Shown piece after piece: positions 42,069-64,000 of a DNA stretch of 64,000 nucleotides. The stretch lies in NCBI RefSeq assembly GCF_000380165.1, contig NZ_KB904666.1, forward strand, positions 1 through 64,000, given 5' to 3'. Below the pieces are notes generated by a model. It was not told the DNA's origin, searched no databases, and saw nothing but the letters and a program-made list of their open reading frames with translations. The position numbers and the translations under genes were made by a program. Within the stretch, counting starts at the first letter, position 1; each line of letters starts with the position of its first letter. This DNA is from Wenjunlia vitaminophila DSM 41686. GTDB taxonomy: Bacteria > Actinomycetota > Actinomycetes > Streptomycetales > Streptomycetaceae.

Positions 42069-45000
42069 GTGACGGCGGCAGGACGCTCCTCGGTACCGCG
42101 ACCCGCACCACCGCGCCCGGCCCAACAGTGGTTCCAGGAACGCCCCTCGCCGTACCCCCACGAGCAGGACGCCCTGGACCACGTCCGCCACCTGATGCCC
42201 CCCGCCGAGCCCTACCGCGCCTGGGCCACCTTCTCCTTCACCGCCCAGTCCGGCCGCGTCAACGAGTGCGACCTGCTGGTCGCCGTGCCGGCCGGGCTCT
42301 ACCTCATCGAGATCAAGGGCCATCCCGGTCGGCTGGAGAACACCGGCTCCACGTGGAAGTTCCGCGGCCCCGACCGGATGCGCACCATCAGCAACCCCCT
42401 GCACCTGACCGACCTGAAGTGCAAGGAGCTCAAGAGCCAGCTCCTGTGGGCCGCACGCAAAGCACGCATCCCCGAACGGGCCGTTCCCCGCGTCGAGCCC
42501 GCCGTCTTCCTCTCCGCCCCCAGCCTGGTCAGCCACCTCGACGAGATCCAGCGGATCAAGGTCTACGGCCGCGACGACGGCTCCAGCGGCCTCGCCCGCA
42601 TCTGGCAGGACTTCCTCGGCCGCCCACCGGAGCGGCCCGAGCGGCGCATCACCCCCGAGTTCTCCCGGCACCAGTTACCGCGCCTGCTCACCGCCATCGG
42701 CATCCGCCAGTCCACCGCCCACCTGCGGTTCGGCGAGTCCTGGAAGCTGGAGCCGCGCCCCCTCGACGCCGGCACCTCCTGGGAGGACCGCCTCGCCACC
42801 CGCGACGACGGCCTGGTCAAGGAGGAGGGCAGGGTCCGCGTCTACCTGGTCAACCGTCTCGCGACCGAGACCGCGAGGAAGACCGCCGACCGGGCGGCCC
42901 GCCGCGAGTACCAGGTGCTCCAGGGCATCCACCACCGAGGCATCGCCGAGGCGGTCGACTTCCGCGAACACATGGGCGGCCCGGCGATCCTGTTCCGCCA
43001 CCGCCACAGCGACCTGCGCCTCGACCAGTACCTCGACGCGTACGGCGACCGCCTCGCCCCCGAGGTGCGCCTCGACATGGTGCGCCAACTCGCCGAGGCC
43101 CTGCGCTACGCCCACAACCGCTCCCTGCACCACCGCGCCCTCGCCGCCCGCTCGGTGTACGTCACCTGCCGCACGGACGGCTCCCGCCCCGAACTGCGGA
43201 TCACCGACTGGCAGACCGCCGCCCGGGACTTCGACACCAACACCACCGTGCTGCGCTCCGTCGGCCGCTCCACCCTGGACGCCGCACTGATCGAGGACGC
43301 CTCCCAGGTCTACCTGGCGCCCGAGACCGACCAGCCGTACACCGACCCCGCGGACCTGGACATCTTCGGCCTCGGCGCCATCTCCCACCTGGTGCTCACC
43401 GGCCAGGCCCCCGCCCCGCAGCGCAGCGGCCTGCTGGAACGGCTGCGCACCGACGGCGGGCTGCACCTGTACGCGGTCGCCGACGGCTTCACCGACGCCC
43501 TGGACGACCTGGTCTTCCAGGCCACCCGCTCCGACGTCAACGAACGCCTCAGCTCCACCGAGGACTTCCTGTCCCTGCTGGACCAGGCCGAACAGGCCGC
43601 CCTCGTCCCCGAACCGGCCACCGCACCCGCGGTCGATCCCCTGGAGGCCCTGCCGGGCCAGTCGTTGGACGCCGAGTGGTCCGTGGCCCGGGTGCTGGGC
43701 ACCGGCGCCACCGCCCGCGCCCTGCTGGTGACCCGGGAGACCGAGGACGACGACGGCGAACCGGTGCGGGAGGAACGCGTCTTCAAGGTCGCCCTCGACG
43801 AGTCCAAGGACGAGCGCCTGCGCGCGGAGGCCCACGCGCTCGGACAGGTCGGCGGCGGCAACGTGGTGCGGCTGCGCGGCGACGGCCTGCGGCAGATCGG
43901 TCCACGGACCGTCCTGGAGCTGGAGTACGCCGGCCAGGAGTCGCTGGGCGCCCGGCTGCGCGCCGAGGGCAGGCTCAGCCCCCACCTGCTGGAACGCTTC
44001 GGCGACGACCTGTTCCGGGCCCTGGACCAGCTCGCGGCCAAGGGGGTGCGGCACCGCGACCTGAAACCGGACAACCTCGGCATCTACCGGCGCAAGGACC
44101 GCACCCTGCAACTGATGCTGTTCGACTTCTCCCTGGCCGACGCCTCAGACCGCGACCTGAGAGCCGGCACCCGCGGCTACCTCGACCCGTTCCTCGGCTC
44201 GACCCGCCGCGCCCTCTACGACGACCACGCCGAACGCTACGCCGCGGCCGTCACCCTGCACGAGATGGCCTCCGGTGAACGGCCCCTGTGGGGCGACGGG
44301 CAGGTGGACCCGCTCACCAACGAACAGGCAGAACTGTCCCTGTCCACCGAACTGTTCGAGCCGGAGCTGCGCGACGGGCTCGCCGGCTTCTTCCGCCGGG
44401 CCCTGCACCGCGACATCGAGCACCGCTTCGACACCCTGCGGCAGATGCAGGACGCCTGGCGCGAGGTCTTCCGGGCCGCCGACTCCGCCGACCTCGGCGC
44501 GAGGAACGAGGACACCGAGGAGGCCCGCGACCGGGCCGCCGCCACCGCGAGCCCCGGCACACCGCTCGACGAGGCCGGGCTCACCTGGCGCGCCGTCGCG
44601 GTGGCCCGCGCCCTCGGCGCCACCACCGTCGGCGAACTGCTGGACGTCCCGCCGTACGCGATCTCCAAGGCGCGCGGCGCCGGAGCCCTGGTCCGCCGCG
44701 AGCTCAACCGCCGCCGCAAGCAGTGGACGGCCCTGCGCGCCCCCACCACCCCCGTCCCAGCGCAGCGCACCGGTGTCGCACCGGCCACCGCCGCGGACTC
44801 GCCCGTCACCCCGGGGCAGGCGCAGGCACCGGACGCGGACGTGGTCCTGTCCGTGGACGAGATGGCCGAACGGCTGACCCCGGCGCCCAGCCGCAGGGCC
44901 CCCGCCCGCGCCGAGGCCGTCCGCCTCACCCTCGGCCTCCCCCCGGACGACGGCGGTCTCCCGCCGCTGGGCCCCTGGCCGGTCCAGGCCCGGGTCGCCG

Positions 45001-46487
45001 AGCGGGTCGCCGTCCAGCAGCCGCAGGTGTCCCGCTACCACCGGCAGGCCGCCAAGGAATGGGCACGGACCCCGTGGCTGGAACCGGTCAGGGACGAACT
45101 CGTCGAGATCGTCGAGACCGCCGGGCGGGTGATGACGGCCCAGGAGGCCGCCGTCGAGCTGAGGGTCCGCCACGGCGCCGTCGGCGACACCGCCGAACGT
45201 ACCCTCGCCAAGTCCCTCGCGGTCGTCCGGGCCGCCGTCGAGGCCGAGCTGTGGGAGGGCGACGACGGGGACGGGTCCCACGAGCCCCGCCTGGCCGTCC
45301 ACCGCCGCGGCGACACCGTCCTGCTCGCCGCCGAGTCCCTGCCCGGCACCGACGATCCCAACCCGCGGGAACTCGCCGAGTACGCCGCCGCGCTCGCTGA
45401 CGTCGCCGAACGCCTCGCCCGCCAGGACCCGCTGCCCGTCCGCGCCGCCGTCCTGGGCGACCTGCGGGCCGTCCCCGCCCCCGACGGCCTCACCCCGCTC
45501 CCGGACGACCGGCTGGTCGGGCTCGCCGCCGCCGTCGCCCCCACCGCCGCGGTCACCCCGCGCCTCGAGCTGTACCCGCGCGACCTGAGCCTGGTCCGGG
45601 CCCTGCGCGTCAGCCAGGCCGCCGCCGGGGTGCGCCGCGACCACGGCGTCACCACTGCCGAACTCCTCGCCCGGCTGCGCTCCCGGTTCCCCGAGCTGGC
45701 CCTGCTCACCGGCCGTGACCTGCCCACCCACGTGGAACTCGAGGACGCCCTCAGGGAAGCGGGGTTCGACCTCGGCCACGACCCGGAACACGACAGGTTC
45801 TTCCCGCCCGCCCCCGAGCCCCCCGTCACCGCCTCACTCACCAGCACCGGCACCAGCCTGCTGGCCCCACCCGCCCGCGCCGCCGCCCTCGCCGGCCAGG
45901 ACCCGCACACCGCCGTCCGCACCGAGCTCACCGCCCGCGTCGCCCGCGGCGGCTTCCTCGCCCTGACGGTGAAGGCCGACCGGCTCCCCGGCACGGCCGA
46001 GACGGTCGCGGCGGCGTGGCCGGTGACCGGTATCGACCTGGGCCGTGAGTTCATCGGCGTCTTCCGCGCCCTGGCCGAGGAGAAGGGCCAGGACTGGCAG
46101 AAGGTGCTGCGCGCCGACGCGGCCTCCGAGCCGGGCCGGATCAAGCCGGGCCTGGCGGCGTTCGTCCGCGTGGTGTGGCAACGGGTCGAACGCCTCGTGC
46201 TGGACCGGGCGGCCACCCCGCGCACCGTCCTGTTCCTGCACGACGCGGGCCTGCTCGCCCGCTACTGGGACGAGGGTGGACACGACCTGCTGGTCCGCCT
46301 CCAGGCCGCCGCCCGCCGCCCCGCCGAGCGCCCGCACGGGCTGTGGCTGCTGTGCCCCGTGGAGAGCCGTGCCCACCCGCCCCACCTGGACGGCCGCACC
46401 GTGGAGGTCATCGGCGGCGACGGGGAACGGCTGCACCTGGACCGGGCACTGCTGGACGATGTGCGAGCGCCGGCCCCGGCCCACTGA
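42069..46487 (+). CDS. pglW: BREX type 2 / Pgl serine-threonine kinase PglW
   Basis: A 1472-residue protein from the GTG at 42069 (GGAGG eight bases upstream). Residues about 25-150 form a NERD nuclease-related domain with NECDLLV and LIEIKGHPG (D and ExK positions kept). Two kinase-like domains follow. The first (about 240-530) has HHRALAARS where HRD is expected (residue 354), so it lacks the catalytic Asp and is probably a pseudokinase. The second (about 535-820) has HRDLKPDN at 661-668 and DFSLAD in the DFG place, and looks active. The C-terminal 600 residues contain helix-hairpin-helix and winged-helix-like segments. PglW is the kinase of the phage growth limitation (BREX-2) system with PglX, PglY and PglZ. 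Confidence 0.93.
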   Translation: MTAAGRSSVPRPAPPRPAQQWFQERPSPYPHEQDALDHVRHLMPPAEPYRAWATFSFTAQSGRVNECDLLVAVPAGLYLIEIKGHPGRLENTGSTWKFRGPDRMRTISNPLHLTDLKCKELKSQLLWAARKARIPERAVPRVEPAVFLSAPSLVSHLDEIQRIKVYGRDDGSSGLARIWQDFLGRPPERPERRITPEFSRHQLPRLLTAIGIRQSTAHLRFGESWKLEPRPLDAGTSWEDRLATRDDGLVKEEGRVRVYLVNRLATETARKTADRAARREYQVLQGIHHRGIAEAVDFREHMGGPAILFRHRHSDLRLDQYLDAYGDRLAPEVRLDMVRQLAEALRYAHNRSLHHRALAARSVYVTCRTDGSRPELRITDWQTAARDFDTNTTVLRSVGRSTLDAALIEDASQVYLAPETDQPYTDPADLDIFGLGAISHLVLTGQAPAPQRSGLLERLRTDGGLHLYAVADGFTDALDDLVFQATRSDVNERLSSTEDFLSLLDQAEQAALVPEPATAPAVDPLEALPGQSLDAEWSVARVLGTGATARALLVTRETEDDDGEPVREERVFKVALDESKDERLRAEAHALGQVGGGNVVRLRGDGLRQIGPRTVLELEYAGQESLGARLRAEGRLSPHLLERFGDDLFRALDQLAAKGVRHRDLKPDNLGIYRRKDRTLQLMLFDFSLADASDRDLRAGTRGYLDPFLGSTRRALYDDHAERYAAAVTLHEMASGERPLWGDGQVDPLTNEQAELSLSTELFEPELRDGLAGFFRRALHRDIEHRFDTLRQMQDAWREVFRAADSADLGARNEDTEEARDRAAATASPGTPLDEAGLTWRAVAVARALGATTVGELLDVPPYAISKARGAGALVRRELNRRRKQWTALRAPTTPVPAQRTGVAPATAADSPVTPGQAQAPDADVVLSVDEMAERLTPAPSRRAPARAEAVRLTLGLPPDDGGLPPLGPWPVQARVAERVAVQQPQVSRYHRQAAKEWARTPWLEPVRDELVEIVETAGRVMTAQEAAVELRVRHGAVGDTAERTLAKSLAVVRAAVEAELWEGDDGDGSHEPRLAVHRRGDTVLLAAESLPGTDDPNPRELAEYAAALADVAERLARQDPLPVRAAVLGDLRAVPAPDGLTPLPDDRLVGLAAAVAPTAAVTPRLELYPRDLSLVRALRVSQAAAGVRRDHGVTTAELLARLRSRFPELALLTGRDLPTHVELEDALREAGFDLGHDPEHDRFFPPAPEPPVTASLTSTGTSLLAPPARAAALAGQDPHTAVRTELTARVARGGFLALTVKADRLPGTAETVAAAWPVTGIDLGREFIGVFRALAEEKGQDWQKVLRADAASEPGRIKPGLAAFVRVVWQRVERLVLDRAATPRTVLFLHDAGLLARYWDEGGHDLLVRLQAAARRPAERPHGLWLLCPVESRAHPPHLDGRTVEVIGGDGERLHLDRALLDDVRAPAPAH

Positions 46488-49963: not shown

Positions 49964-52900
49964 ATGGCGAACTTAACCGAGGGCGTGGGCACGAGCGGCC
50001 GGCGACTGGACGCCGCGGCACTGCTGAAGGACCTGAAGAAGCAGGTCAACGCCCTCGAGGACGACCTGCGTGAACGCAGCGACTCCGTCGAGGAGTACCG
50101 CGAGGCACTCACCGCCGAGTACGACCGCGCACGCGCCGCCCAACGCACCGCCGCCACCTACGGCGCCTGGCGCGACGAACGCGTGACGCAGGCCGCCGTG
50201 GCATGGGTCCTCGGCTGCGTGTTCGTCCGTTTCTGCGAGGACAACGACCTGATCGAGTTCCCGTTCCTGGCCGGCCCCGGGGACCGGCTCGCCCAGGCGG
50301 AGGAACGGCACGAGGCGTTCTTCCGCGACAACCCGTCGCTCAACGACCGGGACTGGCTGATCGCCGCGTTCGACCACCTCATGGGCAGCCACGCCACCGC
50401 CGCGGGCCTCTTCGATCGCGCCCACAACCCGCTGTGGGAACTCGACCCGAGCTACGAGACCGCCACCGAACTGCTGAGGTTCTGGCGGAGGAGGGACGCC
50501 GACGGCGTCCTCGTCCACGACTTCACCGACCCCGACTGGGACACCCGGTTCCTCGGCGACCTGTACCAGGACCTCAGCGACCACGCCCGGAAGACGTACG
50601 CGCTGCTCCAGACCCCCGAGTTCGTCGAGGAGTTCATCCTCGACCTGACGCTCGAGCCCGCGATCGAGGAGTTCGGCCTGGACCCGGTCTGGGAAGGCCC
50701 GGACGGCACGGAACGACGCGGCCTGCGCACCATCGACCCGGCCTGCGGCTCGGGCCACTTCCTGCTGGGCATCTTCGCCCGCCTGGTGAAGAAGTGGCGC
50801 GACGCCGAGCCGGGCACCGACGACTGGACCATCGTCAGCCGGGCGCTGGAGTCCGTCCACGGCTGCGACAAGAACCCCTTCGCGGCAAGCATCGCCCGCT
50901 TCCGGCTCCTGGTCGCCGCCATGCGGGAAGCGGGGGAGCGACGTTTGGCCGACGCCCCGGCTTTCCCGGTGTACGTGGCGGTGGGGGACTCGCTGCTGCA
51001 CGGGCGGGGGGCGGCGGGGATTCAGGGTGACCTTTTCGTCGAGGAAGAAGGGGAGCGCGCATTCACATATGCCACGGAGGATGTGAAGGAGTATTTTAGT
51101 CGAATTGACATGCTGGGGCGTGGGTCGTATCACATTACAGTTGGAAATCCGCCATATATCACGGTAAAGGATAAACGCGAGAACGATAATTATCGTGCAG
51201 CCTATGACGCCACGTCAGGCACCTACGCATTGTCGGTCCCCTTTGCGCAGCGCCTCTTCCGTCTTGCGGTTCGCGGGATCGGCGGCGAGTCTGGCGGAGG
51301 AGGCTTTGTTGGGCAGATAACCGCCAATTCGTTCATGAAACGGGAGTTCGGGAAAAAGTTAATCGAGGATTTCTTTGTCAATGATGTAGAACTTTCGCAC
51401 CTGGTTGACACTTCCGGCGCTTACATTCCTGGACACGGGACTCCGACGGTGATATTTGTCGGGCGGAACCAGCTTCCAATCCAAGAGCGGAAAGTGCGAG
51501 TCGTTCTCGGCGTCCGTGGCGAACCTAGCCAACCTGATAATCCTGCAAATGGACTGGTGTGGTGTGCGATAACTGGCCAGATCCATAAACCCGGCAGTGA
51601 GTCGGAGTGGATTTCCGTCCAAGACCTTCCCGCTAAGGTGTTCTCGACGCACCCCTGGTCCCTCAGTGGCGGGGGAGCGAGAAGAGTCGTTGACGCAATT
51701 CTTGAAGGCTGTTCAAAGCTCGATGGCCGGATTGTTCCTCCCATCGGTCGGGCTATCCGGGCTGGCGCGGACGAAGCCTTTGTTCGCCCGCTGCGGGCGA
51801 CGCTCCCCGTGCGGGCAGATAAGAAAGGTATGCGCCCTCTATTATTGGGAGAAGTAATTCGAGATTGGAGTGCGGAGGCGGAGGTCGGCATCTGGTTTCC
51901 GTACGATAAAGCGCTTGCTGGCGGTGGCTTGAAAGCGGAACTCTGGCCTTGGCGTACAGTGCTTGCGGCCCGTCGAACTTTTCAGGGGGACATGGAGGAT
52001 GCAGGTCTTCAGTGGTGGGAGTATATGCAGTTCACGGCTTCGGCATACCGGGTGCCGTTGTCCATTGTTTTTGCTTTTGTGGCCACCCATAATCACTTTG
52101 TTTTGGATCGCGGCGGTAAAGTGTTCAATCGTTCTGCTCCTGTGATCAAACTGCCGGATGGTGCAGGGGAGGATGAACATCTTGAGCTACTCGGGGTGCT
52201 GAACTCGTCTACGGCTTGTTTCTGGCTGAAGCAGGTGAGTCAAGCAAAGGGGGGAAGCGGCCTGGGGCGTGGGCTTCAGGATGAGGAGTGGGAGGAGCGC
52301 TACGAGTTCACCGGCACGAAGCTCCAAGAGTTCCCGCTTCCGTCACGGCTTCCCCTGGAACTTGGCCGAGCGCTCGACGCGTTGGCGCAGGATCTGACAA
52401 GAGCGGAGCCCTCCGCGGTGTTGTCTGAAGGCTTGCCTTCTCGCGCTGCACTCGATGGTGCCCATGCCGACTACATCCGCGTCCGCCAGTCCATGATTGC
52501 CCTCCAAGAAGAGCTGGACTGGCAGGTATACGGGCTCTACGGCCTTCTCCGTGAGGACGAGGTCGCCCGCGTGACGGCATCCTCCCCCGACCCCACCACC
52601 GTCCCCGAAGTGCAGCTCGGCGAGCGTGCCTTCGAGATTGTTCTTGCCCGCAGGGTGGCACGCGGAGAGACCGAAACCGCGTGGTTCACCCGTCACGGCT
52701 CCACCCCCATCACCGAGGTTCCCGCTCACTGGCCGGACTGGTACCGCGACATTGTCCAGGCCAGGATCGACGTCATCGAGAGCCGCAAGGACATCGCGCT
52801 CATCGAGCGTCCCGAGTGTAAGCGTCGCTGGTCGGCTGAGCCCTGGGAGAAGAAGGAGAAGGCGGCCCTTCGGACCTGGCTGCTGGACCGGTGCGAGGAC

Positions 52901-53662
52901 GCCAGCCTCTGGTTCGCCCTCCGTGAAGGGGTGCGGCAACCACGAACTCTCACGGTCAGCCAGCTCGCTGACGGACTGCGCGACGACGCCGACATCAACT
53001 CCGTGGCGCAGCTCTACGCCGCGGACCACATGGGGAAGCCGGACCTGCCGCTGGCCGGGGTGCTCGCCGAGGTCATCGCCGACGAGCATGTGCCCTACCT
53101 GGCCGCCATGCGCTACAAGGACACCGGTCTGCGCAACCGTGAGCAGTGGGAGCACGTCTGGGAGCTTCAGCGCGAGGAGGACCGCACAGGGAAACGGCTC
53201 GACATCCCCGTGCCGCCCAAGTACAAGTCGTCGGACTTCCGCAAGCCCTCCTACTGGTCGCATCGCGGCAAGCTGGATGTGCCCAAGGAGCGGTTCATCT
53301 CCTACCTGGAGTCGGGGCCTGAGGCTGACCCGACCGTGTTGCTCGGCTGGGCCGGCTGGGATCACAAGGACCAGGCGCAGGCGTTGATCAACCTCATCGT
53401 GGACCGTGCCGAGCGGGACGGCTGGAGCACGCACCGGATTGCGCCGTTGCTGGCGGGACTCCAGGAGGTCATGCCCTGGGTTCGGCAGTGGCACGGTGAG
53501 TTCGATCCCGAGTGGGAGAGTGTCCCAGCCGATGACTGCGAGGCGTTCCTCGAGGAACAGATGGCCAAGCACCAAGTCAGCCAACGGGATCTGAAGGCGT
53601 GGCGGCCTGAGAAGACGACGCGCGGCAGGAAGAAGGCCGTTGTGGAGGTCGAGATGGAGTAA
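49964..53662 (+). CDS. pglX: BREX type 2 / Pgl adenine-specific DNA methyltransferase PglX
   Basis: A 1232-residue protein. After a coiled-coil start (ALLKDLKKQVNALEDDLRER) comes the N6-adenine methyltransferase core: motif I DPACGSGHFLLGIF at about residue 258 and motif IV NPPYITVK at 395-398. The following 300 residues would include the target-recognition part, and the C-terminal third is helical and charged. PglX marks host DNA in BREX; in the Streptomyces coelicolor Pgl system the modification marks phage progeny. Bases 51,050-52,300 are much richer in A and T, with codons rare elsewhere in the window (TAT, AAT, TTA), while both ends have typical high-G+C codons. This mosaic suggests acquisition of a foreign middle segment. 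The reading frame is intact. Confidence 0.95.
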   Translation: MANLTEGVGTSGRRLDAAALLKDLKKQVNALEDDLRERSDSVEEYREALTAEYDRARAAQRTAATYGAWRDERVTQAAVAWVLGCVFVRFCEDNDLIEFPFLAGPGDRLAQAEERHEAFFRDNPSLNDRDWLIAAFDHLMGSHATAAGLFDRAHNPLWELDPSYETATELLRFWRRRDADGVLVHDFTDPDWDTRFLGDLYQDLSDHARKTYALLQTPEFVEEFILDLTLEPAIEEFGLDPVWEGPDGTERRGLRTIDPACGSGHFLLGIFARLVKKWRDAEPGTDDWTIVSRALESVHGCDKNPFAASIARFRLLVAAMREAGERRLADAPAFPVYVAVGDSLLHGRGAAGIQGDLFVEEEGERAFTYATEDVKEYFSRIDMLGRGSYHITVGNPPYITVKDKRENDNYRAAYDATSGTYALSVPFAQRLFRLAVRGIGGESGGGGFVGQITANSFMKREFGKKLIEDFFVNDVELSHLVDTSGAYIPGHGTPTVIFVGRNQLPIQERKVRVVLGVRGEPSQPDNPANGLVWCAITGQIHKPGSESEWISVQDLPAKVFSTHPWSLSGGGARRVVDAILEGCSKLDGRIVPPIGRAIRAGADEAFVRPLRATLPVRADKKGMRPLLLGEVIRDWSAEAEVGIWFPYDKALAGGGLKAELWPWRTVLAARRTFQGDMEDAGLQWWEYMQFTASAYRVPLSIVFAFVATHNHFVLDRGGKVFNRSAPVIKLPDGAGEDEHLELLGVLNSSTACFWLKQVSQAKGGSGLGRGLQDEEWEERYEFTGTKLQEFPLPSRLPLELGRALDALAQDLTRAEPSAVLSEGLPSRAALDGAHADYIRVRQSMIALQEELDWQVYGLYGLLREDEVARVTASSPDPTTVPEVQLGERAFEIVLARRVARGETETAWFTRHGSTPITEVPAHWPDWYRDIVQARIDVIESRKDIALIERPECKRRWSAEPWEKKEKAALRTWLLDRCEDASLWFALREGVRQPRTLTVSQLADGLRDDADINSVAQLYAADHMGKPDLPLAGVLAEVIADEHVPYLAAMRYKDTGLRNREQWEHVWELQREEDRTGKRLDIPVPPKYKSSDFRKPSYWSHRGKLDVPKERFISYLESGPEADPTVLLGWAGWDHKDQAQALINLIVDRAERDGWSTHRIAPLLAGLQEVMPWVRQWHGEFDPEWESVPADDCEAFLEEQMAKHQVSQRDLKAWRPEKTTRGRKKAVVEVEME

Positions 53663-54248: not shown

Positions 54249-55802
54249 TCAGCTACTCCGGTGATTCTGGGGTCCGCAGGACGTCGCTGCCCGTTTTGCC
54301 GCGGCTCTGAGCCACGGCTTCAGCCAGCCGTCCTTGAGGAGATCGGTGCGGATGGCTCGGGCGGAGAACACATAGCGATGGCGGTAGGCATCGTGGGCCC
54401 AGCGGAATCCAGAGTCGAAGGTGCCCGGACGCGGGGTGTTGTCGTCACCGACCTGGGCGGACCAGATCGTCATCCGCCAACGTGCCTCGCCTATCAGGAG
54501 CTGGTAGACGCTCTTGGCCGTCGCGTAATCAGGCATCGGGAAGACGGCGACGGAAACCAGGACGGGAGGGTTGGGACCACCCTGCTCAAGGTAGACACCG
54601 GTCATGGCCTCGGTGCAGCCGCAGGCGGTGAGCACGGACACCAGATCGTCAGGGCCCGCCTCTTCACACGGCCGGGGTCCCGCGGCCACCCGGACGTACT
54701 CGATATCGAGGTCGTTGACGAACTTCGCGGGCAACAGGGCGTCCGCGGTGAACGGGGTCCGGTCGGTTGTCCTGCTGTTCCACGATCTCTTGTTGATTCC
54801 GTTGGGCTCCTGCGGATTCCCGGTGGTGGTCCCGCTGCCCATGGGCCGCAGCATCCCGGCGAGTTCGACGCGCTGCTCGCCGGTCAACCGGTGCACTCGA
54901 TGGGGCCACGGCCTGGCCGAGGCGGAGACGCGACCGATGAGCTCCCGAAGCTGGTTCAGGTCGGGGCGCTGGGCGGGATCCTTGGCCAGGCACGCCGCGG
55001 CGATCGCGCCCAGGCGAGGGGGAAGCCCGGACAGGTCGGCCTCGGTGTACACGACGTTGTGGAGTACGCGCTGGACCGAGGGCCCCGCGAATGGGCTCGA
55101 GCCGGTGCAGGCCATGACCAGCACGGCACCGAGCGAGAAGATGTCGCTGGCCGGCGTGATCGTGTCCCCCTCGATCTGCTCGGGAGACATGTAGGCAGGA
55201 GAGCCGACGAGCCACCCCGTCTGCGTCATCCTGGTGCTGCCCAAAGCATCGTCGGTGGCCAGCGAGATACCGAAGTCGATCACCCGGACGCCCGCGTCGT
55301 TGAGGAAGACGCCCCCTTGGTCAGAGAGAAGAATGTCCAGGTCCGTGGGTCCGCGGGTGAGGAGAATGTTCTCCGGCTTGAGGTCCCGGTGCACCAGGCC
55401 GACCTGGTGGATCTCAGCGAGCGCTGTGACCAGACCGTCGGCCAGCCGCAGGGCCGCCTCTTCGGGGAGCGGCTCACCGTCGGCCTCGTTCTCGATCACC
55501 TGCTGTAGTGACGGGCCGGCAATGAACGCCGACGCCAGCCACGGTGTGGGCGCGTCCAGGTCGGCTGCGATCACAGGCGCGGTGTAGAGGCCGGGCACCC
55601 TGCGCGCCGTGGCGACCTCCCGTCTGAATCGCCCCCTGTGCCGTTCGTCGTCGCGAAGGGCCTCGCGGATCAGTTTGACCGCCACCAGCCGACCGTCCGG
55701 GGAGACGCCCAGATAGACGCGGCCCATGCCGCCATGGCCCAGCTCGGCCAGCAACGGGTAGGGTCCGACCTGCCGTGGATCGGAATCCGCCAAGGGCTTC
55801 AC
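54249..55802 (-). CDS. Hanks-type serine/threonine protein kinase, soluble
   Basis: A 517-residue protein from the GTG at 55802 (AGGAGG ten bases upstream). The kinase domain (residues 14-270) has the G-loop LGHGGMGRVYLG, VAVKLI (catalytic Lys), HRDLKPENILL, DFGIS and GSPAYMSPEQ, so it is active by sequence. No transmembrane helix or PASTA repeat follows; the C-terminal 200 residues form a soluble domain with cysteines (LTACGCTEAMTGVYLEQGG) and a strand-rich pattern. The target is unknown. It lies between pglX and the whiJ-like trio. As PglW is also a kinase, two kinases are present in one defence-type island. Confidence 0.92.
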   Translation of the reverse strand: MKPLADSDPRQVGPYPLLAELGHGGMGRVYLGVSPDGRLVAVKLIREALRDDERHRGRFRREVATARRVPGLYTAPVIAADLDAPTPWLASAFIAGPSLQQVIENEADGEPLPEEAALRLADGLVTALAEIHQVGLVHRDLKPENILLTRGPTDLDILLSDQGGVFLNDAGVRVIDFGISLATDDALGSTRMTQTGWLVGSPAYMSPEQIEGDTITPASDIFSLGAVLVMACTGSSPFAGPSVQRVLHNVVYTEADLSGLPPRLGAIAAACLAKDPAQRPDLNQLRELIGRVSASARPWPHRVHRLTGEQRVELAGMLRPMGSGTTTGNPQEPNGINKRSWNSRTTDRTPFTADALLPAKFVNDLDIEYVRVAAGPRPCEEAGPDDLVSVLTACGCTEAMTGVYLEQGGPNPPVLVSVAVFPMPDYATAKSVYQLLIGEARWRMTIWSAQVGDDNTPRPGTFDSGFRWAHDAYRHRYVFSARAIRTDLLKDGWLKPWLRAAAKRAATSCGPQNHRSS

Positions 55803-56158: not shown

Positions 56159-56368
56159 TCAGCCCAAGCTTGCCGCGAGAACGATGAAATCCTCCCATGC
56201 GCTGGGTGAGAACGAGAGGTATGGCCCATTGCTGTTCTTAGAATCTCGCACCTGGACTGCGTCTGAGGCGTACGCCACTTCGATGCACTCGGCGCCCGCT
56301 GCCGTGCTGTAGCTGCTCTTTATCCATTCCCTGTCGGTGGTGCCGTTGTCCGAGACCTTGGCCGTCAT
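56159..56368 (-). CDS. DUF397 protein (BldB/WhiJ-associated type)
   Basis: A 69-residue protein with the DUF397 pattern REWIKSSYSTAAGAECIEVA, VQVRDSKNSNGPYLSF and AWEDFIVLAASL. Such proteins are small partners of DUF5753-type XRE regulators in streptomycetes, and the pair acts like a toxin-antitoxin-style or developmental control module (WhiJ system). Its ATG overlaps the stop of the XRE gene (ATGA), so the pair is coupled. A terminator follows. The length is normal. Confidence 0.92.
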   Translation of the reverse strand: MTAKVSDNGTTDREWIKSSYSTAAGAECIEVAYASDAVQVRDSKNSNGPYLSFSPSAWEDFIVLAASLG

Positions 56369-57243
56369 GTCTCTCCCTGCAACTGCTCGATGTATTCCAG
56401 TGACTCCGGTGGCGGCAACGCTTGTGCCCGCAGACTGCCGAGTCTCGAGTGCAGAACCCGCACGTCTTTGCGTTCAGTTACCACGCGACTGAAGTGCTGA
56501 ACTTCCACGTAGGTGATCATGTCGCCGCATTCGGATTCAAGGAGCAGGATGGAGCCACCTAAGGCTGCGTGGCTGGTCCGCTCCATCGGCATCACCTGGA
56601 TCTCCACGTGGCGCAACTTCCCGATTTCCAACAGTCGTTCGAGCTGTCCGCGCAGGACCATCTTCCCACCGATGGGTCGCCGTAGCGTCACCTCTTCCAG
56701 CACGAAGCTGAGGAACGGGGCGGGGTGCCGGTGCAGGATCTCCTGGCGAGCCATCCGGGCCGCCACGCTCCGCTCGACCGTGTCCTCGCTCAACGTGGGC
56801 CGGTGCATCTGGAACAGCGCGCGGGCGTAGTCCTCCGTCTGCAACAACCCGTGGATGACGGTGTCCGCGTACGCCCCCATCTCCACCGCGTCCGCCTCCA
56901 GTCGGGCCAGGTCCCGGACCTTCCTCGGGTACCTGGCCCGCGCCACGTCCTCCACGAGGGCCGCCAGGGTGCCGCAGGCGTCCAGGGCCTCGTCGGCGCT
57001 GGTGAGGAACTCGGGTTTGGGGATGCGGCGGGCCCGTTCCACGGAGGAGACCTGTTCCGCGCCGTAGCCGATCCTGGCGCCCAGCTCGGCCTGGGTGAGC
57101 CCGGCTCGTTCGCGCCAGACGCGCACCAGCTTGCCGACGGTGCGGACGACCTCCGAGATGTCCTCGTCCCATTCCTGCCACTCCTGCCTCTGCTGTGTCT
57201 GGGTCTCGTTGTTGGTGGGTTGCCTCTCCTGCTGGTCAGTCAT
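56365..57243 (-). CDS. XRE regulator with DUF5753 domain (WhiJ/AbaA-type)
   Basis: A 292-residue protein from the ATG at 57243 (GGAGG nine bases upstream). The helix-turn-helix (residues about 40-95) reads RVWRERAGLTQAELGARIGY, then GAEQVSSVERARRIP. The DUF5753 part has ADTVIHGLLQTEDYARALF, ARMARQEILHR, FVLEEVTLRRPIGGKMVLRG and HVEIQVMPMERTSHAALGG. These proteins act with a DUF397 protein, encoded directly downstream, and often with a HATPase encoded divergently, as here. They influence development and secondary metabolism in Streptomyces. The N-terminal 25 residues are glutamine-rich and probably disordered. Confidence 0.92.
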   Translation of the reverse strand: MTDQQERQPTNNETQTQQRQEWQEWDEDISEVVRTVGKLVRVWRERAGLTQAELGARIGYGAEQVSSVERARRIPKPEFLTSADEALDACGTLAALVEDVARARYPRKVRDLARLEADAVEMGAYADTVIHGLLQTEDYARALFQMHRPTLSEDTVERSVAARMARQEILHRHPAPFLSFVLEEVTLRRPIGGKMVLRGQLERLLEIGKLRHVEIQVMPMERTSHAALGGSILLLESECGDMITYVEVQHFSRVVTERKDVRVLHSRLGSLRAQALPPPESLEYIEQLQGET

Positions 57244-57401: not shown

Positions 57402-57887
57402 ATGACGTCCACGATCCCCCCGGACGGGTTGCCGGCCGACGCGCCGTCTCCCGCCCGCTGCGTCCAATCCCTGTTGTCCTCCTGTCCCCGTGGGGCCCGC
57501 CGAGCCCGTTGGCTGGCGGTGCGGTGGCTCGAGGAGTGGGGGTGGCCGCCGAGGTGTGTCGCGTCGCAGGACGTGGCGCTGCTGGTGTCGGAGTTGGCGA
57601 CCAACGCCGTGCTGCACGGTGGGCGCCCCGGTTGGTACTTCGGGCTGCGACTGGCCGTCGCGGACGGCGGGACGACGCTGCTGGTCGAGGTGACCGACGT
57701 CGCGCCGGAGCAGGGGCCGACGAACGGGCAGGCGCTCGCCGTGCCCGGTACCGACTCCGAGACCGGGCGCGGAATGTTGCTGGTGGACACGATCGCGGAC
57801 CGGTGGGGCGTGCGCCACGCGGACCCGTTCACCAAGACCGTCTGGTGCCAACTCGACCTCGGCCGACCCGAACCGTCGGGTCGGTGA
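57402..57887 (+). CDS. RsbW-like HATPase (anti-sigma-type) of the whiJ-like trio
   Basis: A 161-residue protein with a GHKL-type ATPase fold: N-box LLVSELATNAVLHGGRPG, weak G1 box VEVTDVAPEQGPT, G2 box ETGRGMLLVDTIADRWGV. It is 159 bp from and divergent to the XRE gene, the standard arrangement of whiJ-like loci. Such proteins may sequester sigma factors or regulators; no cognate sigma gene is adjacent. RARWLAVRWLEEWGWP at the N-terminus is usual for the actinobacterial subgroup. Convergent with qatC, with a 9-bp gap and no hairpin seen. Confidence 0.9.
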   Translation: MTSTIPPDGLPADAPSPARCVQSLLSSCPRGARRARWLAVRWLEEWGWPPRCVASQDVALLVSELATNAVLHGGRPGWYFGLRLAVADGGTTLLVEVTDVAPEQGPTNGQALAVPGTDSETGRGMLLVDTIADRWGVRHADPFTKTVWCQLDLGRPEPSGR

Positions 57888-57896: not shown

Positions 57897-59201
57897 CTAA
57901 GCCGCTGCCCGCCGGTCAGGGAGGAGCGCGGCCAGTTCCTCCCGGCCCCGGTTGATCACCTCCCACAGCGCCCGGGGGTCGGCGTCGGGCGGCAGGGGTG
58001 CGTCGGCGAGCAGGTCTGCGACGGTGAACGGGCGGAGCAGCCAGCGTTGCAGCGCGCGCCAGTCGGCGGCCCTGGGGTCGGACGGGTCCACGGACCACGG
58101 GGCAAGCTCGTACCTGGTGTTGTCGGAGCCGGTGGCGCGGAGCAGGGCGGAGCGGCGGACCAGGCACGGGAAGCACACACCGCAGTTGTCCAGGCGCGGT
58201 CCGCCCTTGCGGCGACGGGGTGGTTTGCCGCAGCTCACCGTGGCTTCCAGGTCGGACGGGGACAGGCCGGCGTCGAGCGCGGTCCCGCACACCTCGCCCT
58301 TGGTCATGCCGGCCAGCGGGTTGACCACCTGGATCGGGGTGACGTCCGGGCACAGGGTGCGGAGGAGGGCGTTGAGGTGGTGGAGCGTCCACGGGTGTAC
58401 CGAGCGGGTGGAGCAGGCGCCGCGGCGTGCGGCGGTGAGCGGCGGGTTGACGGAGAGCTGGCCGTTCTCCGGAATGTGGACCTCCGGCGCATCGAGGGCG
58501 GCCGCGGCGCGGATCGCGCCGGCGACGTACAGCAGGCCCCGGCTGCGGGAGGAGGGCTCCAGGCGCTGCCCGGAGCCGTCGCCCGTTGGCGTCTGGCTCC
58601 ACCGCAGCCGGAGCACTTCCCGGCGGCTGCTGAGGTCCTGCACCGAACGGCACACCCGGTCCTGGAGCCGCAGCATGCTGACTTCGCGGAACCGGACCAG
58701 GAGCAGGGTGCCGGCGGTGTCCGCGCGGGCACGGGTGGCGGCCCAGGCAAGGGAGTCCAGGCCCCCGGAGAGCAGGATGACCTCCCTGCCCTTCACGGGG
58801 AACATGGCGGAAGGGGGCGAGTCCCGTGCGGGGTGGCGACGGAACGAGAGGTCCCACCGGTCCGAGGTGAGGGTGTTCAGCAAGGTGGTGAGGTGGCCGG
58901 CGACCTCGGGAGTGTGCCACAGACCCGGTTCGGCGACGGGAACCGACAGGTGGATGTGGCGGGTCCAGCGGTCGAGGCCGGGTTGCCGGCGGACGCGCTT
59001 GTCGGCGACGAAGATCGCCCTGGCCACCCGGAACAAGTCCTCCGCCCAGTCGGGGACGCTGTCGGGGAACGTGTACCTGCCGGTGATCCTGTCCTCCTTC
59101 TCCTGGAAGGAGTCCGTGCCGACCACGGTCCAGGAGTCGGGGGCCGGCGGCAGGTCCTTCTCGCCGCTCTTCCACCAGACGGCGGCTGTCCGTTCGGTCA
59201 C
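57897..59201 (-). CDS. qatC: QueC-like protein of the Qat anti-phage system (QatC)
   Basis: A 434-residue protein. The PP-loop ATP-pyrophosphatase motif SGGLDS is at residues 145-150. The QueC-type zinc site is present as Cys324, Cys340, Cys343 and Cys346 (NCGVCFPCLVRR). An extra N-terminal region of about 140 residues (WTRHIHLSVPV, PEVAGHLTTLLNTLTSDRWD) precedes the QueC core and is not found in housekeeping QueC of about 230 residues. QueC makes 7-cyano-7-deazaguanine; no queD, queE or folE is nearby, so a defence role is more likely. It overlaps the upstream gene by ATGA. In Qat systems, QatC works with QatA ATPase, QatB and QatD nuclease. Confidence 0.82.
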   Translation of the reverse strand: MTERTAAVWWKSGEKDLPPAPDSWTVVGTDSFQEKEDRITGRYTFPDSVPDWAEDLFRVARAIFVADKRVRRQPGLDRWTRHIHLSVPVAEPGLWHTPEVAGHLTTLLNTLTSDRWDLSFRRHPARDSPPSAMFPVKGREVILLSGGLDSLAWAATRARADTAGTLLLVRFREVSMLRLQDRVCRSVQDLSSRREVLRLRWSQTPTGDGSGQRLEPSSRSRGLLYVAGAIRAAAALDAPEVHIPENGQLSVNPPLTAARRGACSTRSVHPWTLHHLNALLRTLCPDVTPIQVVNPLAGMTKGEVCGTALDAGLSPSDLEATVSCGKPPRRRKGGPRLDNCGVCFPCLVRRSALLRATGSDNTRYELAPWSVDPSDPRAADWRALQRWLLRPFTVADLLADAPLPPDADPRALWEVINRGREELAALLPDRRAAA

Positions 59202-60091
59202 GCGACCTCCCCCTCCTCGCCGCCGGGCTCGGTGATCAGGCCGAGCACCCTGTCCACGGCCGTGGGAACCAGCCGGCGGGCGGTCGCCAGCACGCCGGCC
59301 CCGGACGCGGCGCCCGCCCCCGGTTCATCGGCCTCCCCGCTCCCGAACGCGCCCCCGACCACGTCCCCGAACGCGTCCCCGACCAAGTCCCCGAATCCGC
59401 CCCCGCCCACGGGCCCGACCACCCCCGCAGCCGCCTCGCACGGGTCCGGGACCAGCGGCTCCACCCGCTCGGCGACGAACTCGGCGAACCGGCCGTCGGG
59501 GTCGGCGAACCAGCCGACGGCGTCGATGGCCAGCAGTGGGGGCACGGCCAGCGTGATGTGTTCGGCGACCACGGACCGGAGGAACCCGGCCACGGTCTCG
59601 GCGAAGAACAGCCGGTAGAGCAGGCACAGGATGTCGGAGGGGAGACCCGGCCCGGCAGGGGCCCGCCCGTCGTTCCGGCCCTCGGCACCATCGGACAGGT
59701 CGGCCCGCAACGTGGGGTGGCGTTCGAGTGCCGCACGCCCGGCCGCCAGCGCCGCCGCCCGGGTCACGGCGTCGGCGACCGTTCCCCCGTCGCCTCCGAC
59801 CTCGGTGGCGAGCCGGGCCAGCAGGGCCTCGGCCGAGGCGGGGCACTGCGTCGCCAGTGAGCCGAGCGTGTCAGTGAGGCGTTCGCCGGCCGCGCGAGCG
59901 GCGTCACGCAGGCCGAACGCGGAGGGGTCGTCCCGCAGGGTCTGGTGCAGTGCCCGGAGGTACCTCTCGGCGATCCCGTCGAGCAGCTCCGCGCGGCCCC
60001 GGTCACGGTCGGGTCGCCACTGCGTCAGTTGCCGTCGGGCAGTGCTCCACGGGCCGCCGCGAGGCCCTGGCCACGCCGTCGATGTCCCCAC
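59198..60091 (-). CDS. qatB: QatB-like protein of the Qat anti-phage system
   Basis: A 297-residue protein from the GTG at 60091. It begins MGTSTAWPGPRGGPW, and QatB proteins share such an opening (MGTS, then GP-GG). The remainder is helical and alanine-rich (RYLRALHQTLRDDPSAFGLR, AAALAAGRAALERHP, DILCLLYRLFFAETVAGFLR), with a Gly/Asp/Phe-rich low-complexity part near residue 250. It is translationally coupled to qatC (ATGA). QatB function is not known. No KAP-type ATPase (QatA) or TatD nuclease (QatD) is next to it in this window; downstream of qatC is the whiJ-like trio and upstream is pglY in the opposite direction. Confidence 0.7.
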   Translation of the reverse strand: MGTSTAWPGPRGGPWSTARRQLTQWRPDRDRGRAELLDGIAERYLRALHQTLRDDPSAFGLRDAARAAGERLTDTLGSLATQCPASAEALLARLATEVGGDGGTVADAVTRAAALAAGRAALERHPTLRADLSDGAEGRNDGRAPAGPGLPSDILCLLYRLFFAETVAGFLRSVVAEHITLAVPPLLAIDAVGWFADPDGRFAEFVAERVEPLVPDPCEAAAGVVGPVGGGGFGDLVGDAFGDVVGGAFGSGEADEPGAGAASGAGVLATARRLVPTAVDRVLGLITEPGGEEGEVA

Positions 60092-60446: not shown

Positions 60447-63400
60447 ATGCCCACCAGCGAGCTCTTCCTACGGGATGTCATCGACATCAAGGAGGACGTC
60501 CATGCCGGCGACTTCAAGATCGAGCTGTCCGGGGGGTTCTCCGAGTCGGACGCCCGGGTCGCCGAGTACGTGGTCACCGAACAACTCCAGGGGGCGTTCC
60601 GGGAAGCGCTCGGTCTGGTGGGCGCCGCGGTGCGCTCGGGGAACTCGCACGCCGCCTACCTCCACGGCTCGTTCGGCGCCGGTAAGAGCCACTTCCTGAC
60701 CGTGCTGCACGCGGTGCTCAACAACCACCCGGCGGCCCGCGCCAAGCCCAGGCTCCAGGAGGTCATAGCCGCGCACGACGACTGGCTGCGGCACAAGCGG
60801 TTCCTCATGGTGCCGTACCACCTCGTCGGCTCCACCGACCTGGACTCGGCGCTGCTCGGCGGCTACGTCCACACCGTGCGGGCCCTGCACCCGGACCGGC
60901 CCACGCCGGCCGTCTACCGGGCCGACGCCGCGCTGGACGACGCCAGGCGCCAGCGGGAGTTCCTCGCCGACGACGCCGCGTTCCTGCGCTGGCTAGGGGC
61001 GGGGGCGGCGGCCCTGGAGCCGGGGGGCGGGGCGGACGACGAGGACCTCGACGCGAGCCTGGTCCGCGCCGAGACGGCCGTGCCGGACACCGCCGGCTGG
61101 ACGCCCGCCGACCTGGACCGTGCGTTAGCGGCGCCCGCCGGCGACCCGTACCGCGAGGCGCTGGTGTCGGCGCTGCTGTCCGGGCCCATGTCCGCGTACG
61201 CCCGTGGCGCGCGGGGCGACAAGGACGCCTTCGTGCCGCTGGAGAACGGCCTGTCGGTGATCTCCCGGCACGCACGGTCCCTCGGCTACGACGGGATCGT
61301 GCTGTTCCTGGACGAGCTGATCCTGTGGCTCCAGGCACACATGGGCGATCAGGACTTCGTCCGCGACCAGGTGCAGCGCCTGGACAAGTTGATCGAGTCC
61401 GGGGACGCGGACCGGCCCGTGCCGATCGTCTCGTTCATCTCCAGGCAGCGGGACCTGTCCCAGCTCATCGGCTCGGACGTGGCCGGCGCCGACGTGCAGA
61501 ACCTCGAACAGCAGGTCGAGTACCTCAGGGGTCGCCTCGACGTGGTGGACCTGGAGGACAGCAACCTCGTCGAGATCATCAAGCACCGGGTGCTGGCGCC
61601 CAAACCCGGCATGGAGGCCGTCCGCGACGAGGCGTTCCGGGGGCTGGAGTCGTCCAGGGACGAGGTCCGGCAGGTGCTGTTGGACGCCCACGGCCGCACC
61701 GAGGCCACCTGGGACGACTTCCGCACCCTCTACCCGCTCTCCCCGGCCCTGCTGAACGTGCTGGTCGAGCTCTCCGGCGCGCTCCAGCGCGAACGCACCG
61801 GCCTGAAGTTGGTGCATGAGCTGCTGCGCCGCCGCCGTGACGACCTGCGCCTCGGCGACCTGATCCCCATCGGCGACCTGTGGGACGTGATCGCGGCCGG
61901 CACCGGCGAGGCGTTCACCGCGCGGCTGCGCAAGGAGTCCGAGACCGCGCACCGCTTCCACACCCGGGTGCGGGCCCACCTGCTGGAGAAGTACGGCAGC
62001 GAGGACGACCCCCGGTTCCGGGGCGACGACCGGCTGGTCAAGACGCTGCTGCTGGCGGCCCTGGCGCCCAACGTGCCCGCGCTGACCCGGCTCACCGGCG
62101 GGCGGCTCGCGGCGCTGAACCACGGCACCATCCGGTCCCGGGTGGGGTCGGCCGGGTCGGTGGCGGTCAAGCGGCTGCGGGAACTCCAGGCCGACTTCGG
62201 CGAGCTGCGCAGCGAGGGCGAGAGCGACCCCGTCTTCCACCTGCACCTGTCAGACCTGGACATCGACCCGATCCTGGACGAGGTGCGCAGCGAGGACAAC
62301 CTCGGGCGCCGACGGCAGTGGATCAAGGACCGGCTGTGGTCGGCTCTGGGCATCGACGGGGCCGAGGCGTTCGTCTGCCAGCGGGAGGTCGTGTGGCGCG
62401 GCACCCGGCGCACCGCCGAGTTCGTGTTCGGCAACGTGTGCGACCCGCACCTGCCCGAGGAGCAGTTCCTCCCCGAGACCCCGGGAAACATCCGCTTCGT
62501 CATCGACTACCCGTTCGACGAGGAGCGGCGTGGGCCCATGGACGACGTGCGGCGCGTCGAGACCCTCAAACGCGCCGGGACGACCGCCCCCACCGTCGTC
62601 TGGCTGCCGCACTTCTTCTCCGAGCAGAAGGCCAACCAGCTCGGCCGCCTGCTGAAGATCAACTACCTGCTGGAGCGGAACCGGCTGGAGGACCACACCG
62701 CGACCCGCTCCGCCGACGAACGCGTCCAGATCCGCCACCAACTCAAGGCCCAGAGCGAGAACCTCACCTCACAGCTCACCGCCGTCCTCCAGCAGCTCTA
62801 CGGGATCAGCAAGCCCGACCCCGGCAGCGTCGGAACGGAAGTCCCCGAGAACCAGCACCTGTGGTCCCTGGAACCCGCCTGCCCCGACCCGCGGCCACAG
62901 CCGGGCAAGAGCTTCGAGCAGAACCTGTACGCCCTCGCCGACGCCCTGTTCGGCGCCCTGCACCCCAAGCACCCCGACTTCGACCCGCACCTGAGCCGCA
63001 AGGCCGTCACCACCCGCGAGCTGCGCACCGCCCACGAGTGGATCATCCGTGCCCTGGAGGACGGCTCCCGCCGGGCCGTGGTGGACCGCCACCACCTGCC
63101 CGTGGTGCGGAAGATCGTGCACGGCCTCGGTCTCGGCGAGGTCCACGACGGGCCGTTGAACGTCGGCACCGAGTGGCGGCTGCGCATCAACCAGAAGGCC
63201 GCCGAGGCGAAGGCCGGGCCCGACCTGGCGGTGGAGGACATCCGGCGCTGGATCACCGAACTCGGCTGGACCGGCCTCGACCGCACCGTCGCCAACCTCG
63301 TCATCGCCACCTACGCCCTGCTGGACGGCCGCACCTGGGTGTACCAGACGGAGCCCGTCAGCCAACCGCCCGAGCTCGAACGCATCGGCCCCGGCTACGC

Positions 63401-64000
63401 CCTGCGCGCCGTGGAACTCCCCACCGAGCAGGAGTTCGCCACCGCCCGGGAGCGCGCCGGGAGGATCTTCGGGGTGCCGGTGGCGCCGGCCCTGATCCCC
63501 GGGAACGTCAACAGGCTCGCCGACGGCGTGCGGCAGGCCGCCGCCCGCCACCGCGAGGCCGTCGGTGGAGTACGGGCCAGCCTGCGCAAACACACCGACG
63601 ACCTGGAACTGACCGGCCCGGACACACCCCGGGTGCGCTCCACCCGCGCCGCCGAGGACCTGATCGCCCGGCTGACCCGGACGACCGACGCCACCGCGCT
63701 GGTCCGGGAGTTGGCCGCCGTCACCTACGACGTCACCGACCTGGAACTGGCCTCCGCCATCACCCACGCACCCGACCTGCTGCGGGCGCTGGACGACACC
63801 AACTGGGCCCTGCTGCGCAGCGTGCGCAGCTTCGCCGGACGGGACGACGGGGTCGGCGACCGCACCGAGCGGCTGCTGACCCTGCTCCGGGAGACCGCCC
63901 GCGACCACGAGCAGGCACGCTCCCTGGTCCCCGTCCTGTCGCGCCTCCAGGACGAGACCGTGGCCCTGGTGGCGGAGGTGGCCAGGCTGGCGCAGGTCGC
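60447..64000 (+). CDS. pglY: BREX type 2 / Pgl ATPase PglY (runs off the right edge)
   Basis: The frame opens at the ATG at 60447 (GAGGGAAG eight bases upstream) and is still open at the window end, giving 1184 residues so far; PglY proteins are about 1200-1300. Walker A is LHGSFGAGKSHF (residues 72-83), Walker B is IVLFLDELILWL (about 284-295), in the DUF6079-type AAA ATPase arrangement of BREX. The N-terminus (LFLRDVIDIKEDVHAGDFKI) is highly typical of PglY/BrxC-like proteins. The C-terminal half is helical with coiled coils. It should be followed by pglZ (alkaline phosphatase domain) beyond the window. No frameshift is seen. Confidence 0.95.
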   Translation, partial: MPTSELFLRDVIDIKEDVHAGDFKIELSGGFSESDARVAEYVVTEQLQGAFREALGLVGAAVRSGNSHAAYLHGSFGAGKSHFLTVLHAVLNNHPAARAKPRLQEVIAAHDDWLRHKRFLMVPYHLVGSTDLDSALLGGYVHTVRALHPDRPTPAVYRADAALDDARRQREFLADDAAFLRWLGAGAAALEPGGGADDEDLDASLVRAETAVPDTAGWTPADLDRALAAPAGDPYREALVSALLSGPMSAYARGARGDKDAFVPLENGLSVISRHARSLGYDGIVLFLDELILWLQAHMGDQDFVRDQVQRLDKLIESGDADRPVPIVSFISRQRDLSQLIGSDVAGADVQNLEQQVEYLRGRLDVVDLEDSNLVEIIKHRVLAPKPGMEAVRDEAFRGLESSRDEVRQVLLDAHGRTEATWDDFRTLYPLSPALLNVLVELSGALQRERTGLKLVHELLRRRRDDLRLGDLIPIGDLWDVIAAGTGEAFTARLRKESETAHRFHTRVRAHLLEKYGSEDDPRFRGDDRLVKTLLLAALAPNVPALTRLTGGRLAALNHGTIRSRVGSAGSVAVKRLRELQADFGELRSEGESDPVFHLHLSDLDIDPILDEVRSEDNLGRRRQWIKDRLWSALGIDGAEAFVCQREVVWRGTRRTAEFVFGNVCDPHLPEEQFLPETPGNIRFVIDYPFDEERRGPMDDVRRVETLKRAGTTAPTVVWLPHFFSEQKANQLGRLLKINYLLERNRLEDHTATRSADERVQIRHQLKAQSENLTSQLTAVLQQLYGISKPDPGSVGTEVPENQHLWSLEPACPDPRPQPGKSFEQNLYALADALFGALHPKHPDFDPHLSRKAVTTRELRTAHEWIIRALEDGSRRAVVDRHHLPVVRKIVHGLGLGEVHDGPLNVGTEWRLRINQKAAEAKAGPDLAVEDIRRWITELGWTGLDRTVANLVIATYALLDGRTWVYQTEPVSQPPELERIGPGYALRAVELPTEQEFATARERAGRIFGVPVAPALIPGNVNRLADGVRQAAARHREAVGGVRASLRKHTDDLELTGPDTPRVRSTRAAEDLIARLTRTTDATALVRELAAVTYDVTDLELASAITHAPDLLRALDDTNWALLRSVRSFAGRDDGVGDRTERLLTLLRETARDHEQARSLVPVLSRLQDETVALVAEVARLAQV

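What the first reader, a model, noticed from the sequence alone, without database searches (positions are those of the whole stretch)
57897..60091. qatB-qatC pair inside a BREX-2 locus, without qatA and qatD
QatC (QueC-like with SGGLDS and a four-Cys site plus an extra N-terminal domain) and a QatB-like protein are translationally coupled and lie back to back with pglY. Known Qat systems need QatA (ATPase) and QatD (TatD nuclease) as well. Here the nearest large ATPase is PglY and no nuclease other than the NERD domain of PglW is visible. Either the rest is elsewhere, or a two-gene QatBC unit borrows BREX components. A QueC-like enzyme next to a DNA-methylating defence system also raises the possibility of deazaguanine modification of DNA or protein.
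Basis: partly seen in the sequence, partly recalled or inferred. Interest (0 to 1): 0.82.

Follow-up and report, generated by a model that had tools for sequence, protein, structure and literature searches.

The report
Two-gene Qat defence cassette inside BREX-2
Between two core genes of a streptomycete BREX-2 phage-defence locus sits a self-contained two-gene version of the Qat defence system (qatB-qatC, without qatA and qatD); it belongs to an actinomycete QatBC lineage that recurs in this slot and beside other defence systems, in hosts that mostly lack the deazaguanine pathway such enzymes were expected to use.

Summary
57897-59201(-) encodes a QatC: profile hits, Z 39 to solved QatC, catalytic and zinc residues present. 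59198-60091(-) is a QatB: no sequence-profile hit, but it starts MGTS, overlaps qatC by 4 nt, and its predicted fold matches only solved QatB (Z 11.6, next 4.9). The genome has no QatA, and its only TatD is remote and weak.

This does not look like a decayed Qat operon. A 42-member QatC clade (support 100/100), found only in Actinomycetes, has no qatA beside it at any locus examined; qatABCD operons of the same family form a separate clade. The pair fills a variable cargo slot between pglX and pglY in 10 BREX-2 loci; other BREX-2 loci carry OLD-type, PIN, helicase-PLD or other genes there, or nothing. Embedded copies are not one QatC clade, and sister copies lie beside Wadjet or type I restriction genes, so obligate use of BREX parts is unlikely.

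Published work shows QatBC alone defends against lambda. [quoted passage not shown] This genome lacks recognisable QueE, canonical QueC and TGT (9 of 11 two-gene carriers lack QueE), so home-made deazaguanine is a doubtful substrate.

The parts
57897..59201 (-). qatC, QueC-family enzyme of 434 aa, GTG start
59198..60091 (-). qatB, 297 aa, GTG start, N-terminus MGTS
59198..59201 (-). 4-nt overlap of the qatB stop and qatC start (translational coupling); the same overlap in 38 of 40 related loci with a called qatB
60080..60091 (-). codons of M-G-T-S, the motif whose Gly2 is essential in P. aeruginosa QatB
58752..58769 (-). QatC SGGLDS pyrophosphate-binding loop (residues 145-150)
58392..58418 (-). 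QatC ACSTRSVHP substrate-site motif (residues 262-270); equivalents of T278 and T280 are Thr265 and Ser267
58164..58232 (-). QatC zinc site, C324, C340, C343, C346
60092..60446 (.). divergent intergenic region between qatB and pglY
   Evidence: sequence; pglY start placed at 60447 by inspection (MPTSELF...)
60447..64000 (+). pglY (BrxC-type ATPase), continues to about 64364 on the contig
57402..57887 (+). RsbW-like ATPase gene at the edge of the slot, recurrent in cargo-bearing BREX-2 loci
56365..57243 (-). XRE-DUF5753 regulator gene at the edge of the slot, recurrent in cargo-bearing BREX-2 loci
49964..53662 (+). pglX, BREX-2 adenine methyltransferase
42123..46487 (+). pglW (start approximate, from the first profile-matched residues)

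Best explanation
It is an autonomous two-gene QatBC defence cassette carried as cargo in a variable slot between pglX and pglY of a streptomycete BREX-2 locus. SHOWN here by computation: membership of an actinomycete QatC clade without qatA beside it; intact QatC active site and zinc site; QatB with the MGTS motif and QatB fold; conserved 4-nt coupling; recurrence in the same slot, where other BREX-2 loci carry other cargo; sister copies outside BREX. INFERRED from published P. aeruginosa and E. coli QatBC: Met1 of QatB is removed, the Gly2 tail enters the QatC active site, QatC uses ATP to activate a carboxylate and join it to Gly2, and the QatBC complex alone restricts some phages while QatA/QatD affect the range. 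INFERRED here: the cassette adds an independent second layer to BREX-2, sharing its locus rather than its enzymes; the RsbW-like/XRE-DUF5753 pair at the slot edge may regulate the locus. The conjugated molecule is unlikely to be home-made 7-carboxy-7-deazaguanine (CDG), because the genome has no recognisable QueE.
For: QatC identity and fold; QatB motif and fold; residue conservation over 42 clade members; no QatA, only a remote weak TatD; no qatA beside any of 48 related loci, clade support 100/100; slot with alternative cargo; other loci next to Wadjet or type I R-M; embedded copies not one clade, AU p 1e-34; published sufficiency of QatBC and need for Gly2 (PMC13279940); QueE, canonical QueC and TGT missing.
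Against: No phage or biochemical data for this clade. QatB has no sequence-level match, and Z 11.6 is modest for a helical fold. Its N-terminal tail seems much shorter than in P. aeruginosa QatB (about 65 residues) and might not reach the active site in the same way. All BREX-embedded copies lie in one PglY sublineage, which leaves room for a functional link. The window's QatC stands alone on a long branch (0.58).
Confidence: 0.68

Rival explanations
1. QatBC is functionally wired into this BREX-2 sublineage: it uses or guards BREX proteins (PglY in place of QatA, PglW NERD or PglZ in place of QatD), so the two act as one system.
For: Same place and orientation, divergent from pglY, in 10 loci; all carriers in one PglY sublineage; other BREX-type genes near L055, L069, L083, L086 and L094.
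Against: Many close relatives lack BREX within 10 kb, including most of the window's sister group; the slot carries unrelated cargo or none in sister BREX-2 loci; QatBC alone suffices in E. coli. Eight of the carriers were found through QatC, so the enrichment in one PglY sublineage is biased.
Confidence: 0.2
2. It is the remnant of a degraded qatABCD operon that is decaying inside BREX-2.
For: qatA and qatD are absent; G108 carries a broken relative.
Against: Both genes are intact, with catalytic residues and coupling conserved across the clade; loss is shared by the whole clade, which is separate from qatABCD QatC.
Confidence: 0.06
3. The QueC-like enzyme makes a 7-deazaguanine for DNA or tRNA modification.
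For: QueC fold with SGGxDS and four cysteines; one isolated PTPS/QueD-like gene in the genome.
Against: No TGT-family, QueE or canonical QueC gene in the genome; the QueC substrate residues Tyr/Asp are Thr/Ser; E. coli QatC does not restore queuosine (PMC13329287).
Confidence: 0.03

Closest known systems
qatABCD system of P. aeruginosa and E. coli (PMC13279940; Gao et al. 2020 cited there)
   Same: QatC with N- and C-terminal extensions, SGGxDS, zinc site and substrate-site Thr; QatB with MGTS start and QatB fold; qatB directly before qatC with a short overlap
   Different: No QatA or QatD at the locus, throughout a whole clade; second substrate-site Thr is Ser; QatB tail seems shorter; QatB about 15% identical by structure alignment; found in BREX-2, Wadjet and type I R-M surroundings
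Type IV CBASS Cap9 (QueC-like) with its CD-NTase CdnD (PMC11996544)
   Same: QueC-family enzyme paired with a partner protein that exposes an N-terminal glycine
   Different: No CD-NTase or Cap10; partner fold unrelated; CDG-binding Tyr/Asp replaced by Thr/Ser; host mostly without QueE
BREX-2 / Pgl of Streptomyces coelicolor (PMC4365076)
   Same: pglW-pglX and pglY-pglZ blocks with other genes between (6 kb apart in S. coelicolor)
   Different: Here the intervening genes include qatBC; the review PMC12839542 does not mention Qat or QueC in its main text
BREX loci with additional effectors (PMC8565348; PMC12839542)
   Same: Extra defence genes lie within or beside a BREX locus
   Different: Here the cargo is a QueC-family protein-modifying pair, in the pglX-pglY slot of BREX-2

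Membership tests
Qat system, QatC | QueC core with QatC-specific N- and C-terminal extensions | tested here: met
   Model aligns to solved QatC at Z 39.2 over 395 residues, 4-430
Qat system, QatC | SGGxDS, zinc cysteines, D(x)nR..WxR, RxRxxxF/Y, ExG, HP, TK motifs of the QatC cluster | tested here: met
   against the motif list of PMC13329287
Qat system, QatC | Two invariant substrate-site threonines (T278, T280) | tested here: inconclusive
   Thr265 kept, Ser267 in all 42 clade members; 2 of 9 canonical QatC also have Ser
Qat system, QatC | NCBIfam QatC equivalog cut-off (280 bits) | tested here: not met
   221 bits; the fold and motifs place it in the family as a divergent clade
Qat system, QatB | N-terminal MGTS motif | tested here: met
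Qat system, QatB | QatB helical fold | tested here: met
   Z 11.6 over 190 residues to 9y01_A, next chain 4.9; modest Z for a helical protein
Qat system, QatB | Disordered N-terminal tail of 30-90 residues | tested here: inconclusive
   Predicted helix from residue 14, so the tail looks shorter
qatABCD operon | qatA (KAP-type ATPase) and qatD (TatD) in the operon | tested here: not met
   hence filed as a QatBC-only variant, not as a qatABCD system
BREX-2 core component | Present in BREX-2 loci generally | tested here: not met
   20 further BREX-2 loci of the family examined have no qatBC at the locus
Canonical QueC (preQ0 synthase) | CDG-recognising Tyr/Asp and a host preQ0/queuosine pathway | tested here: not met
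   Thr/Ser instead; no QueE or TGT in the genome
QueC-type N-terminal protein modification (Cap9-like) | Covalent modification of the partner's Gly2 | not testable with these tools
   Needs intact-protein mass spectrometry; not reconstituted even for canonical QatC (PMC13279940)

The most novel reading that the evidence does not exclude
[quoted passage not shown] Most hosts lack recognisable QueE (9 of 11 two-gene carriers), canonical QueC (10 of 11) and TGT (all), and the nucleobase-recognising residues are replaced, so this would be a new protein modification, mobile between BREX-2, Wadjet and type I R-M islands.
Probability: 0.4. Interest if true: 0.78.

Novelty: new variant of a known kind. 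Interest (0 to 1): 0.58.

Why it matters
The reaction catalysed by QatC is an open question (PMC13279940 could not reconstitute it). A natural lineage that has persisted without QatA and QatD in many species suggests that QatBC is an evolutionary unit, not only a laboratory truncation, and gives small, clean systems to work on. Because most hosts lack the known CDG pathway, these strains offer a natural test of whether QatC really uses a deazaguanine. The pglX-pglY slot also emerges as a cargo site where candidate defence genes could be sought.

Tried and rejected
Sequence searches for QatB relatives (Pfam, NCBIfam, PADLOC, PDB by single sequence and by profiles of 11 and 29 rows) found nothing; a fold search was needed. 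Canonical QatB were collected and aligned but are too diverse for a useful comparison by eye beyond MGTS. MADS-like PADLOC hits at 35248-37023 were set aside: the protein begins like an ABC-transporter ATPase and its neighbours have no defence hits. DpdF/DpdJ hits of brxHI are read as shared helicase domains, not a Dpd system. A consistent third partner of qatBC was sought by clustering the neighbours of 48 loci; none is universal. Three weak QatC hits in the family survey (G007, G045, G311) matched under 45 residues and were dropped. Gene calls of my own GC-frame script truncate some genes, so borders of cargo genes are approximate. BREX-2 co-occurrence at the genome level was not relied on: only 4 of 11 two-gene carriers also have pglY.

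Full report
WHAT IS THERE. The window is the first 64 kb of a 76.9-kb contig of a 6.4-Mb draft genome (99% complete). It belongs to the same family as genomes whose contigs carry Streptomyces names, so Streptomycetaceae. A BREX-2 locus runs pglW (about 42123-46487), pglX (49964-53662), pglY (60447 to about 64364), pglZ, brxD, brxHI. Between pglX and pglY, pointing left, lie qatB (59198-60091) and qatC (57897-59201), sharing 4 nt; qatB and pglY are divergent.

QATC. The protein matches the PADLOC and NCBIfam QatC models (2.3e-64; 2e-65, the latter below the equivalog cut-off) and solved QatC (1.2e-41). A model built with 26 clade members (pLDDT 84) superposes on solved QatC with Z 39.2 over 395 residues, against 13.4 for QueC and 12.7 for Cap9, so both QatC-specific extensions are present. 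SGGLDS, the zinc cysteines and the QatC motifs listed in PMC13329287 are kept in the window and in the other 41 clade members with few single exceptions. Of the two substrate-site threonines of PMC13279940, T278 is kept and T280 is serine throughout the clade; two of nine canonical QatC also have serine.

QATB. No profile finds it. It begins MGTS (GTG start), as do all ten homologues whose starts came from alignment to residue 1 or 3 and not from the motif. PMC13279940 shows that the motif's glycine is essential in P. aeruginosa QatB. The predicted structure (pLDDT 80) has QatB 9y01_A as its only strong PDB match: Z 11.6 over 190 of 215 residues, the next unrelated chain at 4.9. Z 11.6 is modest for a helical protein, so the identification rests on fold, motif, gene position and partner together. 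The first helix starts at residue 14, so the free tail looks short compared with about 65 residues in P. aeruginosa.

NO QATA OR QATD. The QatA model finds nothing in the genome. The QatD model finds one weak TatD on another contig, as it does in every genome tested, consistent with a housekeeping TatD. In the same family four genomes hold qatA-qatB-qatC-qatD operons with QatC only 33-39% identical to the window's, whereas the eleven two-gene carriers lack both partners near qatBC.

A CLADE OF TWO-GENE SYSTEMS. A scan of 84,980 species genomes with patterns from this lineage gave 48 loci, all actinomycete (Streptomyces, Micromonospora, Verrucosispora, Nocardia, Actinomadura, Kutzneria and others). 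None has qatA within the sequence held, tested with QatA queries from Streptomyces, Arthrobacter and Deinococcus; some loci are cut by contig ends. In 38 of 40 loci with a called qatB the 4-nt overlap is kept (that search itself required a GTS start, so it is no test of the motif). In a maximum-likelihood tree 42 two-gene QatC are separated from nine qatABCD QatC with 100/100 support. The scan was patterned on this clade, so it cannot say how many two-gene systems exist elsewhere. PMC13329287 reports qatA and qatD near only about a third of QatC-cluster proteins, which leaves room for others.

THE SLOT. Eight of the 48 loci, G009 and the window have qatBC in the same place and orientation between pglX and pglY. 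Of 20 further BREX-2 loci from the family, eight have pglX and pglY adjacent or nearly so, one has only the XRE-DUF5753 and RsbW-like genes, and eleven have these plus other genes, among them a helicase-PLD protein, an OLD-type ATPase-TOPRIM protein, PIN-domain proteins and PDC-M28 candidate defence proteins. S. coelicolor likewise has 6 kb between pglWX and pglYZ (PMC4365076). The slot is therefore a cargo site with a standing regulator-like pair. Embedded QatC do not form one clade (AU p about 1e-34), so the slot was entered or left more than once. All carriers fall in one PglY sublineage, but eight of them were found through QatC, so the enrichment is uncertain.

OUTSIDE BREX. Eight loci have type II Wadjet genes within 10 kb, four more a type I methyltransferase, and four have BREX-type genes outside the slot (BrxC, PglW-like, or brxD/brxHI pieces). 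L059, one of the nearest stand-alone relatives, has none of these. The pair travels with defence islands and is not tied to BREX.

MECHANISM. Published: QatBC alone protects E. coli against lambda-vir; QatB G2, the SGGxDS serines and the substrate-site threonines are essential; the reaction is unresolved (PMC13279940). With these elements conserved, ATP-driven modification of QatB Gly2 is the most likely action here (inferred). The substrate used by Cap9, CDG, needs QueE. The window's genome has no hit to two QueE models that do detect E. coli, B. subtilis and the QueE genes of related streptomycetes; no canonical QueC; no TGT; and only an isolated PTPS gene. Of eleven two-gene carriers only G287 and G108 have QueE. 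Unknown QueE forms, salvage or draft gaps could explain this, but it weakens deazaguanylation from endogenous CDG and makes a different conjugate worth testing. It also argues against DNA deazaguanine modification.

VERDICT. The 'borrowed BREX' idea is possible but not favoured. The novelty is a natural, lineage-stable QatBC-only variant of Qat and its place in a BREX-2 cargo slot; I found neither described in the papers searched, which exclude most subscription journals.

Noticed in passing
window 54249-55802 (-): A Ser/Thr protein kinase gene lies between pglX and the XRE-DUF5753 gene; a similar kinase (46% identity) lies just after qatC in L059 (11540-12364).
   Followed up: partly
window 48106-49741 (+): A possible helix-turn-helix gene (48106-49149, judged by eye) and an HD-domain gene (49169-49741) lie between pglW and pglX.
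   Followed up: no
L133-L151, pglX-pglY gaps: The BREX-2 pglX-pglY slot carries unclassified genes in several species, for example a 379-aa protein without Pfam or PADLOC hit (L133:12547-13683) and a 537-aa one (L141:4044-5654): candidate defence genes.
   Followed up: partly
G108:C2, G285:C16, G184:C1: Adjacent QueD-like and QueE-like genes without canonical QueC or TGT in the genome; they might make CDG for something other than queuosine.
   Followed up: no
L031 (G108:C5), qatC region 9423-10441: The qatC relative is interrupted by a stop or frameshift while its qatB is open: a probable pseudogene.
   Followed up: no
L056-L070 and L089, around qatBC: In one Streptomyces sub-clade qatBC sits between type II Wadjet genes and a type I methyltransferase, a recurrent defence-island arrangement.
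   Followed up: partly
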